Below are positions 26,932 to 40,420 of a stretch of 64,000 nt of DNA, one piece after another (position 1 is the first letter of the stretch; the number at the start of each line of letters is the position of its first letter). Where the stretch lies: the NCBI GenBank assembly GCA_039000515.1, contig JBCFYV010000024.1:42915979-42979978 (forward strand), given 5' to 3'. This DNA is from Timema cristinae (lineage: Eukaryota > Arthropoda > Insecta > Phasmatodea > Timematidae). Position numbers and translations under genes: made by a program. The notes below the pieces were generated by a model. It did not search any database. It was not told the origin of the DNA and saw nothing but the letters and a program-made list of their open reading frames with translations.

Positions 26932-29900
26932 CTGCAAACATACACATCAACACAGCCCCTGCCATGTAGACCACACACAGTACAGCCTGTTTTATTGGAG
27001 GTATTCCACCTATACTTTCTAGCCACACAGATTATGACATGATAGTACATTAGAAGTTACCAACCTGTGACATAACAGTAAATTCAGGTGGAATTTTCCA
27101 TTCTAATATGTTTGAGTTTTATTTAACGAGTTTTAAAGATAAAACGTTTAAACAAATATCATACATTCTTAAATAATTCTTTAAATATATCTATATTATC
27201 AATACCATATTTTTTAAATCATAAAGTAATTGTATTACAAACAAGTTAACCCATTAAAAAGATCATAATGTAGTTCCATTATAGACGAGTTTTTTAAAAT
27301 CGTCTACAACTTTGGCTACTCGGTCTACTAACGAAAATGGCCATTAAGAATCTTTCTGTTAGGATGTAGAGTAAAAATGTCCGTGGAAGAATATGTCTTT
27401 CTAGAATATGAAGCAAGAAAATGAGTATATTTTAAATGATGTCTAGGCTCAAAAGGTAAAGTGAGTATTTATACTTGTCAGCGGAAGAGGATATACCTTA
27501 TCAGTAACTAACTAAGATGCAACCCGCTACGCTAACTACTTCCTCAAGTGTGCATGCAAACTTACCTCTGCGCTCGTCTTGCCGAACATTGGGTTATCGA
27601 AGGCCTGTGGGAGGCTCGTCCAGTGCTGCGCTCTGCCGGTGTCCACCTGAACCTTCCCGCCATTCTCGCTGCCGGTCTCGCTGCTCTGCACCTCTTCTTC
27701 TTCTTCTTCTTCTGCCTCTTTGCCGAACCTCGCGAACACGAAGGGGACAGCTTCAGCCGAACTCAGAAGATTCCTGAGGGAATTAATATCTCCGAGGGTT
27801 GTTTATACAACTATGTAGAGGTTTAGTGCAAATAACTTTGTTTTCTATAGTTTTAGGTAGGATTGAAACAAAACGCGAGCTAAGCCCGAATTTTTTCAGT
27901 TTTAATTTAGCCAATTTTAATTTGTGTGTGTGTGAAAATAAATCTAATATTGCTTAGGTATATACCCCCAGTTTAATTTTTTACCGTAATTTGTACCGTA
28001 TTTTAATACCTATAGGACCCTTAACCCTCTTTAGAACGGCCTTGAATTAAATACATCAAAATTGCTCATCAAATTCCAGAATAGGAAGATATATACATAC
28101 AAATAAATTAAATAACTAGGCTATTATATATTAATAATAATTACGTTTATAGCGGCATCTAAATATCATATTCTTTAAATCAATAAATATACTAACTTAT
28201 CTAATTAATCCATCATGATATGCACATTTGTGCAGTTGTAATTGTACTATTGTCAGCATAAAGCCCTCCCGAGTGTAAGGTGGCTGCGTTATCTGATAGC
28301 TCATGATCTTAATTGATCACTCATATGTAGCTGAAGATTTACACACGTCTATCACAGACTCAAAGTATGTGTGAAGAATGACCCTGGGCCACAGACAAAT
28401 AATATACCCAGACACTCAACCTCCAGGTTAAAATGGTTGCGCTCCTTTTGGCAGCTTGAGTCCTTCAACACTAGGATCGCTGCGGTTAGTCCTATCCTCA
28501 CCCAGCAGCGACACTAGCGAGGCCCAGTGTTGAAGGAGTCAAGCTGCCAAAAGGAGCGCAGTGAAACCTCCATAAGGCTGAGAGTCTGTTTCTTACTTGT
28601 CTGCGGCCTAGGCACGAGACAACCCCTGGATAGCTTAGTAGTAAGAGCGTTGGCGTACTAATCCAAAGGTACTGGTTTCGATTCACTTGTTTAGGTGTCA
28701 TTTTTCAATTTAAAGAATACATATATAAAAGTTATGATATATTAGATTTCCTTTATTTTCTTAAAATTTAATTTCTGGGTACGCCATTGGACGATCATAA
28801 TATCTATCCACTCAGGAGCAATCAGCATAGTGGTGTCATTCATCCACTTTTTTCTCACCACATTACTGAATAGACTCTGGTCTTGTATTAAGTGAAGTTG
28901 TCAAGTGCAAACTTATTACAGAGACTTTAGGCCCTTATAAGTCAACGCTAACAAAATAATTATCCCCAGTAACAAACATTAAATAGGCCTACCTAATATA
29001 TAGAATGCATTAAACCAATAAATACATTGTAAGTTAAACATTTTAAAGACTAAGCTTCTTGCAATTTAAAATAATAATCTTTTCAAACTTTGACTTTTGA
29101 TATCATCTGCACGTTAATCGGCCATCTTGCAACCGATGACCGGAATATTAAATACAAGTCCACGATCGACCAAGGAATAGTTTGGACTTAATTTTTTTTA
29201 TACATTCTTCATTTGACAGCAGCAAAATATGTACCAGTAGAATAGTTTTTCTTTCTTTATGAAATAATCACTTATCAATTTTATTATATTTTTCCATTAT
29301 TTTAAAACCAAAATAATTACTAAAGTCGGAATTTGAAGACTTATTTTAAAAATTAATATTTTTATTGGTAAATATTTTTCATCAACAATTCAAAGTATTA
29401 CCAGAACTAATGAAATGGCGAGGGGATGAAATGGATCATGTGAAATAATTAGGTGATCATATGGATCATGTGAAGTGGCTAGAAGATGATATGGATTATG
29501 TTAAATAGTTAGAGATGATATGGATCATGTGAAATAATTAGGTGATCATATGGATCATGTGAAGTGCTAGAAGATGATATGGATTATTTTAAATAGTTAG
29601 AGGACGATATGGATCATGTGAAATAATTAGGTGATCATATGGATCATGTGTAGTGGCTAGAAGATGATATGGATTATGTTAATAGTTAGAGGACGATATG
29701 GATCATGTGAAATAATTAGTGATCATATGGATGATATGAAATAGTTAGGTGATCATATGGATCATGTGAAGTAGCTAGAAGATGATATGGATTATGTTAA
29801 ATAGTTAGAGGACGATATGGATCATGTGAAATAATTAGGTGATCATATGGATTATATGAAATAGGTAGGTGATCATATGGATCATGTGAAGTAGCTAGAA

Positions 29901-32900
29901 TATGATATGGATTATGTTAAATAGTTAGAGGACGATATGGATCATGTGAAATAATTAGGTGATGATATGGATCATGTGAAGTGGCTAGAAGATGATATGG
30001 ATGATGTGAAATAGTTAGAGGATGATATGGATCATGTTAAATAGTTAGGTGATCATATGGATGATGTGAAATAGCTAGAGTATGATATGGATCATGTTAA
30101 ATAGTGAGAAGATGGTATGGACTATGGGACTTGTCCAAACACCCACCACACTACGGGTGTGTCTGATGCCATAAACACGACTTACAGTTTGTCGCTATAG
30201 ACGACGAACACCAGGTATATCAGCCCCATGACCACAACAACGGCGAGCAAGGAACCGAACATGGTACTCATCGCGCCAGCGAGTCTGGAAGAAGTGATGG
30301 CTGGGCCCGAGGCGTAGACCACAATCCTGGTCACCCCTAGCGACATTTCTGAAACAATCGCAAGACTACTATTGCCTTTCATTTTAGAAGGGCCATATGA
30401 TTCATGTACAAATAACTAAACACATGTATTTGTTGTTTTTCTTTGCTGAAAAATGTATCATTGGTGAAATTTTCCCCTTTCAAAATAATTATTAATTAAT
30501 TGCCGGGGATTGAGTGCTGTGTATGGTCTAGCTAGACTCTAGATTAAAGTTAGTTTTTGAGTCATGTGCTGATATTATCAGTTGCTTCCGATTTTGTAAT
30601 TCCATGTTAAATTATATATATATATATTAAATATATATAATATAATGTATACACCCTTTTCTAGCTCCCAGATAGATAATAATAATAATAAAAATAATAA
30701 TAAATCCTAGTAATAATAATAATAATGTATTAATTCGGGGGCAGCTACACTTCACTTTTTGATAGTAAAGAATGTGTTGTAAGATGCGGTGCTAAATAAA
30801 AAGTGGCCTGTTTTGTTTATGTTAATCATTCACACAATGTTTTTTTAATCACTGCCTCTTATTAATAGTTCAGGTTATACGCACATATATGATACTTAGT
30901 CTAATGGGGCATGGTTGAAGAAGGAAGCATTTTAGAGGTAGTCTACCCGCGTTGGCATGGAGGGAGAGTGGTAAACCATTTAGGGGAAAAAACACCCTCA
31001 GTATACTTGAACGGGATTATATAGCCCCGATCTCCCCTTCATCAGCAGACCAGTCTAACATGAGAGTGACACCTTAGTCCATTCGGCCACTGAAGTGGGT
31101 CACAGTGATGGTTGATTTGTACTAAATTCAGTATTGATTCAAATACGATAGCTTCGCCCGTATGGACAGAGTATGGAAAATAGACTCGACACTTAACCTC
31201 TCTCCAGTATGGTCGCCAGCTCCTTGGCCGTATCACTAGAAGCGCCATTGTAGCTGGCCTTGTCCACCATCACCACCTGGATCTGCCTGGTCAACGTGGT
31301 CTTGCCAACGTAAGCCGTCACGTCGGAAAACTTCCCTTCATTCAGATACCTCTCGACGCGGTCTCGCAGGGAGGCAATCTTGAAGTCACTGTTGTATTCC
31401 AATAACAAGTGAGCACCTGCAAATTATTGCTACCGTTCAAACATCTACCTTAGAATAGTCACTAATTTTAGTCCTTAAAATTTCACAGAAGTTTAGCAAT
31501 ATTAACTAACCATGGAAGTATGATTAGCTCATTAAAGGATTATAAGATCACCAAGGTCATGTCGAATCACCATGCCAGTATTATCTAAGCCTGGCAATGC
31601 CAGCTCACCATGACAGTACCATCTAAGTTTGGCAATGCCAGTTCACCATGCGTGTACCATCTAAGTTGGCAATGCCAGCTCACCATGACAGTACCATCTA
31701 AGTTTGGCAATGCGTACCAGCGTGTATATCTAAGTTGGCAATGCCAGTCGCCATGACAGTACCATCTAAATTTGGCAATGCCAGTTCACCATGCCTGTAC
31801 CATCTAAGAATGCATGCTGGCTCACCATGCAGTACATCTAAGCCTGGCAATGCCGCTCACCATGCCAGTACCATCTAAGTTTGGCAATCCGGCTCACCAT
31901 GCCAGTATCCATCTAAAGCTGGCAATGCCGGCTCACCATGCAGTACCATCTAAGTTGGCAATCCGGCTCACCATGCCAGTATCATCTAAGCCTGGCAATG
32001 CCGGCTCACCATGCCAGTACCATCTAAGTTTGGCAATCCCGGCTCACCATGCCAGTATCATCTAGACTGGCAATAGCAGCTTACCGTGGCAGTGTCATCT
32101 AACCCAGCAATGTAAGCTAACAACGGCAGTCTCGGCGGTAAGCCGACTCGGGTGCGATTGCTCAACGCAACGATTGTGACGTACTCACCACAGACATCGC
32201 AGCAGTGTCCAAGTGGCCGTACCGGTCTGGCGCAAAGGGGTGGTTGACCCTCGCACTGCACGTTGTGGCAGATCTCACGTTGCACTGCCTCCGAGACGCA
32301 CCTACACCCCGTCTGGTCGGTGCAAGATGTCTCCGTGAAAGTGACGAGGTCATAGCGAGAATCTTCCGAGGCCAGAAACTGACGCTCCCCGGCCTCAGAC
32401 CTCAGGAGGTCTTCCCAGTCGTAGGAGCTCATCAACTAAATCGGTCAATACACTTACTATTTCATTGGCCAAAAATATGTGCCCTTTGTTTACAATTTTA
32501 AAGGGCAGCAAAGATTACCCTAATCGGTTACACCAGGCCTGCCCAACTGGCGACCCGCGGGCTGCATATTTTGCGGCCCATAACGCACTAGAAAAGTTTA
32601 AAAAAATAACATCATTCAGGAATCAAGAGAGTTTCTGTTCAAGAGCATCAACTAAAAAAATTGTTGATATTGTAAAGGGCTAATTTCCCGCACACCATTT
32701 AGGGATATTAAATGAGGCCCTTAGCTAACTTCAAGTTGGACAGCCCTGTAGTAGCAGAGTATAATCCATCAAGGCAGGACTGCTACCATCCAGAGAAAAC
32801 GGAGTGTACATTAATTAAACATAAACATGATTAAAATGAATAATTATTTTTTTATAGCAATATTATCCCAATCTCTAAAATGAAGCCAGTGAGCTACTGA

Positions 32901-35900
32901 AAAGTAACGCCTTTCCTTCGGCTAAATCCACAATTTTATGCATTTATTTTTATTAGTATCTAATTAGTAACATAACCGTTTCGGTCACCAAATGGTCTAG
33001 GGCATCACTCTAGTGTTGGACTGGTCTGCTGATGATGGGGAGATCAGGGTTCAAATCTCGGTTGGGTCTACTGAGGGTGTTTTTTCTAAATGATTTATCA
33101 CTCTCCTTCTACTAAAATGCAATTAAATTACCCTTAAAATGGTTCCTTCCTCATCCCCTGAACCGATAATAAGACGTGGTGATCAAAAAAGTTAATAACA
33201 TACGATTTTACTAATAATATTTTCATGACACGAAAACAAAAAGGCTATAAAAATTACCTCGTTGCTGAAGTACAATTGGCCGATACGCGTGTCCGTGTTC
33301 ATCTGATGCATGATATTTCCTACCTCCTTGCTGAAGTATAATTGGTAGATCGACGCTTGGTGTGTTTTACCCCCTCGCTGAAGTTTATTTTGCAGATCAA
33401 CGCTTGGTGTGTCTTACCTCCTCGCTGAAGTTTATTTTTCAGATCAACGTTTGGTTTCTTACCCCCTCTCTGAAGTTTATTTTGCAGATCGATGCTTGGT
33501 GTGTCTTACCTCCTCGCTGAAGTTTATTTGGCAGATCGACGTTTGGTGTATCTTACCCCCTCGCTGAAGTTTATTTGGCAGGTCGACGTTTGGTGTATCT
33601 TACCTCCTCGCTGAAGTTTACTTAGCAGATCAACGCTTGGTGTATCTTACCTCCTCGCTGAAGTTTATTTGGCAGGTCGACGTTTGGTGTATCTTACCTC
33701 CTCGCTGAAGTTTATTTAGCAGATCAACGCTTGGTGTGTCTTACTTCCTCGCTGAAGTTTACTTAGCAGATCAACGCTTGGTGTATCTTACCTCCTCGCT
33801 GAAGTTTATTTGGCAGGTCGACGCTTGGTGTGTCTTACCTCCTCGCTGAAGTTTATTTGGCAGGTCGGCGTTTGGTGTATCTTACCTCCTCGCTGAAGTT
33901 TATTTGGCAGATCAACGCTTGGTGTCTTACCTGCCCGTTGAAGTACATCTGTCCGATCGACACGCGTGCTCGCGGGAGTGTGATGCTGAAACTGCTTTGG
34001 CCTGGGAACACTACTGTGTCCGTCTCACAAGGCACTTTGTCCGAATGGGGGATGGCAGGGTTGGCCGGCGACGAGAGGTTCACCCCTATGGGGGAGTGAA
34101 GATCCCCGAAATCCATCGAGAATATCGGGTTATACCTCTCCTCCGTCTCTCCCAATCCCTTCCAGCTGTCCGGATTTAGCCACTCCAGGGGCTGCCATCG
34201 GGTGAAACGTACGTCTAGACCTGCAACAAATCTCCGGCAATAGTTAGGTGTACGATGCCTTTCTTGACCATAAGAGGAGAGGCCTGGGGTTTGATACCCA
34301 TCTGAATGGTTTGGGTGTGTTTTTGTTTCAATTTGGGTTTTCCTTTCACACTGAGGACTTATAGGTGTTAAGTTTATTTAACAGGGATGTACTGAATAGC
34401 TTATGTTTATAAAAGCGATAAAAAATTATTGTTCATAAATATTTTTTTAATATCTTCACCTAACAATACAAAATATATTTTATATATTAATATAGAGGAT
34501 TATATTGAATATACAAATGTAAACCACAGTAATAACACTATTTCTTATTATTATTAAATTCAAATTTACCTGCTGAGCCGCTGTGCTCGTCATTTTGTAT
34601 CCAGTGGTCCCCGTGACCGTCAAACTCCCTTCTAGTGGTAGTATCAACTCGCCGCTACGAGGTAGCACTAGTCCTCTCAGCGTGGTATCGCCATCTGGTA
34701 GTGACACGGCCATCTGAAGCTCACTGGGGAAAACAACTGTGTCTCTGGAACACGGTTCCCTGTTGACGTCCCAGTTGGCAGGGTTATTGAAGTTGGTATT
34801 GTGCCACCAAACTTTGAGAACACCGTTGACGTATGCCGAGCCTTAAACACAAGAAATGATAATATATTTTATAGATACAGTCAATTTTTTTTAATATAGG
34901 AGAGCGCCTTATAAGAAAAAGTATCTACATTCACATATTCATACGTACAAGACGTGTTCTGCAGCTGTCACTAATTATTAATCGGTATACCTATTTTGGA
35001 AGCGCAAAACCATTAACCCCTCTCACTCACCCCAAACAAAAAAGAAGAAGAAAGAGTTGGTATATTTGGTGATTTAAGACTTAAATGCCTGGAGGACCGT
35101 TTAATTTTAGTTTGTGACTCAAAATACTGTGTGGGTATGTATGTATGTGTATATATATTATTTTGAGTCACAAACTATATAATATTATTAGTAAAAAAAT
35201 AGTCATTGTTCTACATGAGAAAATGGTTTATATTCTCAGCAAAATATATATTTGAAAACAGATTGTTTGATTACTATTAGCTATCAGGGTGCCCAACTTA
35301 TGACCGAGGGCCACAAGTGAATCCACGAGACTAGTGGTGGGTTAATTTTGGTGAAGTTATGCAAATAACGAGAGCGGGTATTTAATTGTGAGTGAAATAA
35401 CAAGTGTTAATTTAAACGTGTTTATTTATGTACGTATCAAACGGATTTACGGACTAAAATACACTATCTTCTAATACGTCAATATAATTCAGCAGATTTA
35501 AGAAATAAATTAAACATGAACCTCAATTGGAACTTTCATGGATTTTTTCCCCACTCAGGTCAAAACTTTCCGTTTCTCGGGCTAAAAAACATCGATTTTA
35601 CTACAGTAAGCTACGTACTTTTCCAAGAAACTTCATAGGCCACAAAAAAAAGTGGGTCTAGTTGGACACGCCTTAGTTATATGCTTTTATTGTGTCGAAA
35701 ATGACGGTATATTACAAAAAATGTTAGAGTGATACTAGCGTCAATGTTGTGGTCGCTAGACACTACAACTACTTAACTTCAGGAAACACTACTAATCGTA
35801 CCCAACTAAAAAATCACCAAAATTTCGCCTTTATTTATTGATCAAGTCACAAAGTTTCTAGTAAAATGCAGCACAACTTGAGACGTTTTGTGATTTTTGT

Positions 35901-39399: not shown

Positions 39400-40420
39400 T
39401 TGTATGACTGTCCCGTCGGAAAACATCGAAAGCGTACAAGAGGAAAACAAAATCTCATATCAAAAACGCACTAAGAACTGGATCAAAAAGCGCACTTAGA
39501 CCTTGTATCAAAAACTCACTAAGCTCCGGCTCAAAAAGCACACCTAGACCTTGTATCAAAAACTCACCAAGATCCGGGCTCAAAAAGCGCAATAGACCTT
39601 GTATCAAAAACGCACTAAATCCGGCTCAAAAAGCGCAGCTAGACCTTGTATCAAAAACTCACTAAAATCCGGCTCAAAAAGCACACATAGACCTTGTATC
39701 AAAAAACCATAGATCCGGCTCAAAAAGCCACCTAGACCTTGTATCAAAAACGCACTAAGATCCGGCTCAAAAAGAACACCTAGACCTTGTATCAAAAACT
39801 CACCAAGATCCGCTCAAAAAGCGCAACTAGACCTTGTATCAAAAACGCACAAAATCCGGCTCAAAAAGCGCAGCTAGACCTTGTATCAAAAACCACAAGA
39901 TCCGAGCTCAAAAATACACACCTTACCTTGTATCAAAAAGTCTATCCAAGATCCGGCTCAAAAAGCGCAACTAGACCTTGTATCAAAAACTCACTAAGAT
40001 CCGGCTCAAAAAGCACACCTAGACCTTGTATCAAAAACTCACCAAGATCCGGCTCAAAAAGCGCAACTAGACCTTGTATCAAAAACTCACCAAGATCCGG
40101 CTCAAAAAGCGCAACTAGACCTTGTATCAAAAACGCACAAGGAAAAAAATCTGCATACCGTGGTGACATGGTAAAGATTTACTGTAGGCATTCCCCTTAC
40201 CCTTTACAATAATTAGGTTAGGTGTTGCCATATTAGGGGAACAACTAACCTAGTCTAATTATTATTATGTGGCCCAGAAACTACAGACAATGGCGTGCTT
40301 TTGATGCTCCTACCTTATGTGCTATTGATTTACTCCAAAGCAGGTAAGTTACACAAATTCAGCCTATGCGTTTTCAGTGCGTAGCCTTTCAGGTAGTTTA
40401 CAGTTAAACGATAACTGTTA
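39400..40420 (+). repeat. dispersed repeat X, copy 2, with internal expansion
   Basis: Flanks (AAAACATCGAAAGCGTACAA at the left; AATTAGGTTAGGTGTTGCCA, TTGATGCTCCTACCTTATGT, TTTCAGTGCGTAGCCTTTCA at the right) match copy 1 at 20560-21180. The part corresponding to 20615-20650 is expanded into the 48-bp array. Confidence 0.8.
39470..40145. repeat. 48-bp minisatellite inside repeat X
   Basis: About 14 copies of CTCACTAAGATCCGGCTCAA + AAAGCGCAACTAGACCTTGT + ATCAAAAA. The unit length keeps frames partly open on both strands (141 codons plus, 75 minus); these lack any domain. Confidence 0.95.

What the first reader, a model, noticed from the sequence alone, without database searches (positions are those of the whole stretch)
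33254..33935. Minisatellite made from an exon/intron boundary: a ladder of splice donors in AMN intron 3
The 47-bp unit repeated about 14 times aligns with the last bases of AMN exon 3 plus its donor. On the gene's sense strand nearly every unit contains GAGGAG|GTAAGA or a one-base variant, so the true donor is followed by a row of near-identical 5' splice sites at 47-bp spacing. This could capture U1, cause extended exon 3 isoforms, or select for a stronger true donor. The exon itself is unit number 15. I know of no named system of this kind.
Basis: partly seen in the sequence, partly recalled or inferred. Interest (0 to 1): 0.75.

Follow-up and report, generated by a model that had tools for sequence, protein, structure and literature searches.

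The report
Repeats copied from an exon's edge
In a stick insect, the end of a gene segment and the splice signal after it have been copied about 14 times in a row, and other genes of the same genome show the same thing, which may be a way for introns to grow and new gene segments to appear.

Summary
The window comes from a Timema stick insect closest to T. cristinae. On the minus strand the AMN exon 3 donor (33930) is followed by 13 units of 45-47 bp and one divergent distal copy. Each unit ends in an exon-3-like tail plus GT; 8 of 13 are exactly GAG|GTAAGA. The exon end matches the unit in register with the donor, 21 of 30 bases, 0 of 5000 shuffles as good. The array has one genomic match, itself. 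A name exists: amphioxus "mirages". The new part is scale. Three spaced CAGGTRAGT give 1056 genome-wide matches against 142 reversed; an acceptor motif gives 60 against 52. Of 15 donor-array loci in two capped lists I read 13; 5 start at the donor of a clear coding exon, including CTR9 and TRAPPC10. A tachykinin-receptor-like case lay in one of 12 arbitrarily placed stretches. Best reading: tandem duplication across the boundary, tolerated because the first donor is normally used. The distal AMN copy is in frame, and gene models of three Timema species count it as coding: a candidate newborn exon, without RNA proof.

The parts
33931..34220 (-). AMN exon 3, ends ...SIGQMYFNGQ|; its last ~31 nt are the source of the unit
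33929..33930 (-). true exon 3 donor, CAG|GTAAGA, U1 duplex -11.0 kcal/mol
   Evidence: Bacillus rossius, Calliphora and human AMN align across exon 3/exon 4 without a repeat-sized insert
33324..33930 (-). minisatellite: 13 units of 45-47 bp, about 16 nt intron start plus about 31 nt exon end each
33884..33885 (-). first array donor; use would add 45 nt in frame (VRHQALICQINFSEE)
33258..33323 (-). distal divergent copy; reads ...MNTDTRIGQLYFSNE and shares a further exon stretch (CACGCGT) that the units lack
   Evidence: DNA similarity to the exon alone not significant; with exon 4 it scores 70.7 bits to Pfam Amnionless against 72.9 for the real exon end with exon 4
33256..33257 (-). distal donor GAG|GTAATT, U1 duplex -6.7 kcal/mol
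33258..33377 (-). candidate 120-nt exon made of the last unit and the distal copy; coding in the T. cristinae gene model P0003 (RGGKTHQASIYQLYFSKEVGNIMHQMNTDTRIGQLYFSNE)
   Evidence: protein model only, exon limits inferred from the window DNA, no RNA seen
32189..32435 (-). AMN exon 4 (LMSSYDW...CCDVCG|GTGAGT)
31567..32102 (-). second array, intron 4, 38-bp unit, most units with ATG|GTGAGC; not significantly like the exon 4 end

Best explanation
The array is a mirage-type minisatellite. A tandem duplication copied the last ~31 nt of AMN exon 3 with its donor and the first ~16 nt of intron 3, and the copy number then grew into the intron. Shown: units that contain the exon end, one donor per unit, no second genomic match, a divergent distal copy, and the same arrangement at other exons of this genome. 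Inferred: the start is a slip between short matching stretches in the exon end and the intron start (visible at CTR9), and the arrays persist because the upstream-most donor is made first (and at AMN is the strongest) and is normally used, so the copies leave with the intron. Inferred too: acceptor-side copies are not kept, because an upstream acceptor copy would change the mRNA. The array is thus mostly tolerated intron growth that leaves spare splice sites and coding-like sequence from which exons can be recruited; the distal AMN copy is a candidate.
For: Register match and controls. One genomic match for the 682-bp array. Other Timema AMN models carry the array: T. shepardi reads six units and the distal copy, T. 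californicum four units and part of a fifth. Same structure at other exons: CTR9 (PDB match E 4.4e-35; 28 of 30 in register), TRAPPC10 (Pfam E 1.2e-26; 24 of 30), a tachykinin-receptor-like 7TM exon (PDB neuromedin-K receptor E 9.7e-5; Pfam 7tm_1 E 2.8e-4 but below its curated cut-off; 30 of 30) (register counts). CTR9: 489-bp intron, 407 bp of it array, and a 10-of-11 match, read by eye, between intron start and exon end at the unit junction. Donor motif 1056 against 142 reversed; acceptor motif 60 against 52. Outgroup and human AMN lack the insert.
Against: No RNA data, so use of the first donor is assumed. Pattern counts are matches, not arrays; a few long arrays can inflate them. The acceptor motif is T-rich and, I expect, fits fewer real acceptors than CAGGTRAGT fits donors; a softer acceptor pattern did not complete. 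Of the 12 comparisons, two (AMN exon 4 with its intron-4 array; the PCI-domain exon of L021) show no exon similarity though a donor-bearing array starts within about 110 nt, and L024, L020 and the E2F-like L026 pass the ungapped test but not the gapped one (156, 1612 and 1288 of 2000 shuffles as good). So not every donor-bearing array is shown to be exon-derived. In T. cristinae, T. shepardi and T. californicum models parts of the AMN array are coding.
Confidence: 0.8

Rival explanations
1. Exon birth: the last unit plus the distal copy is a real 120-nt cassette exon that inserts 40 residues in frame between exons 3 and 4 of AMN.
For: It is open and in frame, and coding in the T. cristinae model. 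The distal peptide MNTDTRIGQLYFS[N/K]E is in the three Timema models that hold exon 4 (P0001, P0003, P0004), 14 of 15 residues identical. It matches Pfam nearly as well as the true exon end.
Against: The insert lowers the Pfam score (115.2 to 104.2 bits); outgroups lack it; the acceptor cttcag|CGAGG has little pyrimidine run and the donor is weak (-6.7). The models are unreliable: P0003 also translates the unrelated 48-bp minisatellite at 39458-40138. An analogous repeat-derived exon in lancelet PGBD5 was left out by its authors for want of EST or mRNA support (passages).
Confidence: 0.25
2. Alternative donors are used: AMN mRNAs end exon 3 at array donors, mainly 33885 (+15 residues), others giving truncated products.
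For: Array donors pair well with U1 (8 of 13 at -9.6, better than the real donors of exons 2, 5 and 6 at -8.3, -7.7 and -5.4); human IFI6 is said to use downstream repeat units as donors (introduction passage).
Against: The upstream donor is stronger (-11.0); amphioxus mirages are reported not to disturb splicing; only one array donor is in frame before a stop, and its product scores lower in Pfam (106.6 against 115.2).
Confidence: 0.2
3. The donor rows act as U1 decoys that keep transcription going through introns (telescripting).
For: Donor-only excess genome-wide; U1 silences premature polyadenylation sites (abstract starts in a search listing).
Against: No expression data. The CTR9 intron with its array is only 489 bp, hardly in need of protection. 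Tolerance explains the asymmetry without a function.
Confidence: 0.1
4. The resemblance is chance, or the unit is a dispersed repeat that happens to lie here.
For: Some donor-bearing arrays are of this kind: L019 and L022 share a related unit at distant loci. Gapped shuffles occasionally equal the AMN score.
Against: 0 of 5000 ungapped shuffles and 0 of 18,014 window pieces match as well; a single genomic match.
Confidence: 0.02

Closest known systems
Mirages of amphioxus (Adh3, globins BflGb6 and BflGb9, TnC, PGBD5); PMC3087553 and PMC3902484, passages seen
   Same: Minisatellite-like tandem copies of an exon/intron boundary, many with splice signals; edge units escape homogenisation; repeat-derived exons are proposed, and one was predicted and doubted.
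   Different: Here an insect, 13-14 units against 3 and 6 in the two BflGb6 haplotypes; a donor-motif excess genome-wide with no acceptor-motif excess, while amphioxus cases include both sides.
Human IFI6 (6-16) minisatellite; Turri et al. 1995, title in reference lists only, paper not held
   Same: Tandem repeats that offer splice donors downstream of an exon.
   Different: There repeat units are said to be used as donors (passage of another paper); use is unknown here. That its unit is about 12 bp is recalled.
Intron gain by tandem duplication of AG/GT proto-splice sites (Rogers model; Drosophila cases, PMC2891723, passages seen)
   Same: Tandem duplication that copies a splice site.
   Different: There a new intron arises inside coding sequence; here an existing intron grows from its donor.

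Membership tests
Mirage (exon/intron-boundary minisatellite) | tandem units contain exon-end sequence joined to the start of the adjoining intron | tested here: met
Mirage (exon/intron-boundary minisatellite) | many units carry splice signals | tested here: met
   13 of 13 array units are followed by GT, 12 of 13 within one base of GAG|GTAAGA
Mirage (exon/intron-boundary minisatellite) | edge copies escape homogenisation | tested here: met
   the distal copy diverges from the inner units, which are alike; no tree of units was built
Mirage (exon/intron-boundary minisatellite) | length instability between alleles or cells | tested here: inconclusive
   only protein models of other species; T. 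californicum and T. shepardi show mostly 15-residue (45-bp) units, the window mostly 47-bp units
Mirage (exon/intron-boundary minisatellite) | normal mRNA is made despite the array | not testable with these tools
   no RNA held
IFI6-type donor minisatellite | repeat donors are used in mRNA | not testable with these tools
   no RNA held
Intron gain by tandem duplication | a new intron appears inside an ancestral exon | tested here: inconclusive
   exon 3 and exon 4 join without a repeat-sized insert in outgroup proteins; intron presence in the outgroup genes was not examined

The most novel reading that the evidence does not exclude
Timema has a genome-wide, donor-specific process in which introns lengthen by copying exon ends with their 5' splice sites, and the copies are being recruited: in AMN the distal copy has become a translated 40-residue exon, so array-bearing introns act as nurseries for exons and perhaps as U1 platforms.
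Probability: 0.2. Interest if true: 0.88.

Novelty: new variant of a known kind. Interest (0 to 1): 0.68.

Why it matters
In the passages I saw, exon/intron-boundary minisatellites are described from a few lancelet genes. Here they recur at several genes of an insect genome, with a strong genome-wide excess of donor rows and none for the acceptor motif tried. That asymmetry turns the question of how splice-site choice filters DNA duplications, and how introns grow and exons are born, into something countable and testable in a genus with several sequenced species. It also warns that such arrays can corrupt gene models.

Tried and rejected
Intron-4 array as a second AMN mirage: I first took exon 4 to run to its CACG|GTAAGC. 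Homology puts the donor at 32188, and exon 4 end against unit is not significant. Searches used the wrongly extended exon 4; searches use the corrected one. Searches used the exon 2 end in the window's own frame, which differs from the Timema models.

L019 and L022 as mirages: dropped, they share a related, dispersed unit. L017: dropped, antisense in the intron of a Rab-like gene (Rab named from recall). L021: array starts 58 nt after a PCI-domain exon donor but is unlike the exon. L020, L023, L026, L028: possible only. L023 fails the ungapped test (4 of 30) and passes the gapped one (0 of 2000). Two listed loci (C1 2105k and 7295k, units like those of fetched loci) were not read.

Kinase exons as an unbiased exon sample: places returned without sequence. 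Short AMN query for further Timema proteins: nothing. Turri 1995: not held. Earthworm metallothionein introns: passages seen, a different thing. Softer acceptor pattern: not completed.

Full report
What is there. The window belongs to a 1.29-Gb genome. Its AMN exons translate to a protein 96% identical to the T. cristinae model P0003 in the alignment (89% by BLASTP, over the whole query); T. shepardi and T. californicum models are more distant. AMN lies on the minus strand: exon 3 34220-33931, intron 3, exon 4 32435-32189. From the exon 3 donor at 33930 a minisatellite runs to 33324: 13 units of 45-47 bp, then a divergent distal copy to 33258. The unit consensus that I wrote out for one search is GTAAGATACACCAAGCGTCGATCTGCCAAATAAACTTCAGCGAGGAG; exon 3 ends GTCGATCGGACAGATGTACTTCAACGGGCAG.

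Is it more than chance. Exon end and unit align without gaps and in register with the donor, 23 of 31. Leaving out the last three bases, to avoid rewarding the splice consensus, it is 21 of 30; 0 of 5000 shuffles reach this, and the same exon end against units of 10 other loci gives at most 12. With gaps allowed, 2 of 2000 shuffles do as well, and the best of 5000 shuffles equals the score. The 682-bp array has one match in the genome, itself (that search skips very common words).

Donor ladder. Of 13 array donors 8 are GAG|GTAAGA, 4 differ at one base and 1 at two. U1 duplex energies: true donor -11.0; array 8 at -9.6, one -9.3, two -9.2, one -6.5, one -4.5; distal donor -6.7 kcal/mol. The other AMN donors read -8.3, -10.6, -7.7, -5.4 and -10.7 (exons 2, 4, 5, 6, 7). 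About 1.4% of 3816 GT sites on that strand reach -9, array sites included. Donor 33885 would add 15 codons in frame; a stop follows in the next unit.

The distal copy. It reads NIMHQMNTDTRIGQLYFSNE and scores, with exon 4, 70.7 bits to Pfam Amnionless against 72.9 for the real exon end with exon 4, which points to a coding origin; as bare DNA it is not significantly like the exon. The T. cristinae model has exactly the 40 residues of the last unit plus this copy between exon 3 and exon 4. T. shepardi reads six units and the copy as protein; T. californicum P0001 begins at the copy, and P0002 ends in the array. Against this, Bacillus rossius, Calliphora and human AMN (6GJE) join the two parts without a repeat-sized insert, inserts lower the Pfam score (115.2 to 106.6 or 104.2), and P0003 also translates the 48-bp minisatellite at 39458-40138, so these models cannot be trusted at repeats.

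Elsewhere in this genome. I took 12 10-kb stretches at round coordinates (8 of the 20 asked did not exist; 10 of the 12 are on the window's contig). With the window they hold 19 minisatellites by my filter. Two of the 19 are of this kind: AMN, and in L016 a tachykinin-receptor-like exon followed by about 20 copies of 78-105 bp made of its last 80 nt and intron start, first unit 78 of 80 identical. A genome-wide pattern of three AGGTRAGT at 20-50 nt gaps gives 4061 matches against 1758 reversed; three CAGGTRAGT give 1056 against 142. The places printed are capped lists from the start of contig C1, so not a random sample; they come from 15 loci, and I read the flanks of 13. Five begin right at the donor of a clear coding exon: CTR9 (E 4.4e-35), TRAPPC10 (E 1.2e-26; no PDB match), a Pumilio-like exon (named from recall; no Pfam hit), an unnamed exon whose next exon continues in frame (L024, L034; no Pfam or PDB hit) and a signal-peptide-like first exon (L030; so read by me, no Pfam hit). 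Register scores: CTR9 28, TRAPPC10 24, Pumilio-like 16 (4 of 5000 shuffles; gapped 3 of 2000), L024 15 (27 of 5000; gapped 156 of 2000, so weak); L030 gapped, 1 of 2000. Four more are possible: L028 (21 of 30), L020 (16; gapped test fails), L026 (13; gapped test fails; E2F-like from recall, no Pfam hit) and L023 (gapped only). In L021 the array starts 58 nt after a donor without exon similarity, and three loci are not of this kind (L017, L019, L022).

Donor side only. An acceptor pattern of equal information, TTTTYCAGG three times, gives 60 matches against 52 reversed. The counts are of matches, not arrays, and the motif probably fits fewer real acceptors, so this supports but does not prove donor specificity.

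How it likely works. At CTR9 the intron start (CACTACAGCCG) and the exon near its end (CACCACAGCCG) share 10 of 11 bases where the unit closes (by eye); the intron is 489 bp, of which 407 bp lie between first and last array donor. I infer slippage or repair between short matches, then minisatellite growth. A copied donor lies downstream of the original, which is transcribed first and usually used; a copied acceptor would lie upstream of the original and alter the mRNA. Selection would then keep donor copies and remove acceptor copies. This last step is inference.

Comparison. The name for this structure is 'mirage' (PMC3087553 and PMC3902484, passages); the IFI6 minisatellite is a cited functional parallel. 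Judged by titles and abstract starts, searches that combined mirage with minisatellite or amphioxus, Timema with tandem repeats and introns, and minisatellites or tandem duplications with splice sites (10 of 11 listed in 115) showed no insect mirage in that library.

Noticed in passing
window 34600-34620 (AMN exon 2 end, minus strand): The exon 2 end reads in a different frame (TTGYKMTSTAAQQ) from the Timema models (DHWIQNDEHSGSA); a one-base difference near the run of four C at 34609-34612 would explain it, an assembly slip or a real frameshift allele.
   Followed up: partly
window 39458-40138: A 48-bp minisatellite on the minus strand appears as 16-residue repeats at the N terminus of the T. 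cristinae AMN model, probably an annotation error.
   Followed up: partly
window 31567-32102 and 29425-30121: Minisatellites also start within about 110 nt of the AMN exon 4 and exon 6 donors; the first has a donor-like GTGAGC in most units but no significant exon similarity.
   Followed up: partly
L016 5316-7365 (minus): Tachykinin-receptor-like exon with about 20 tandem copies of its end plus donor (AAG|GTCAGT), nearly identical to the exon and so probably recent.
   Followed up: yes
L019 and L022: Arrays at distant loci of contig C1 share a related unit (GTAAGT..CTGGCTATCCCTCCTA..), a dispersed donor-bearing repeat of unknown origin.
   Followed up: no
L018 and L032, CTR9 intron C1:1172506-1172994: An intron of 489 bp is mostly array; without it about 82 bp remain, an example of intron growth by boundary duplication.
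   Followed up: yes
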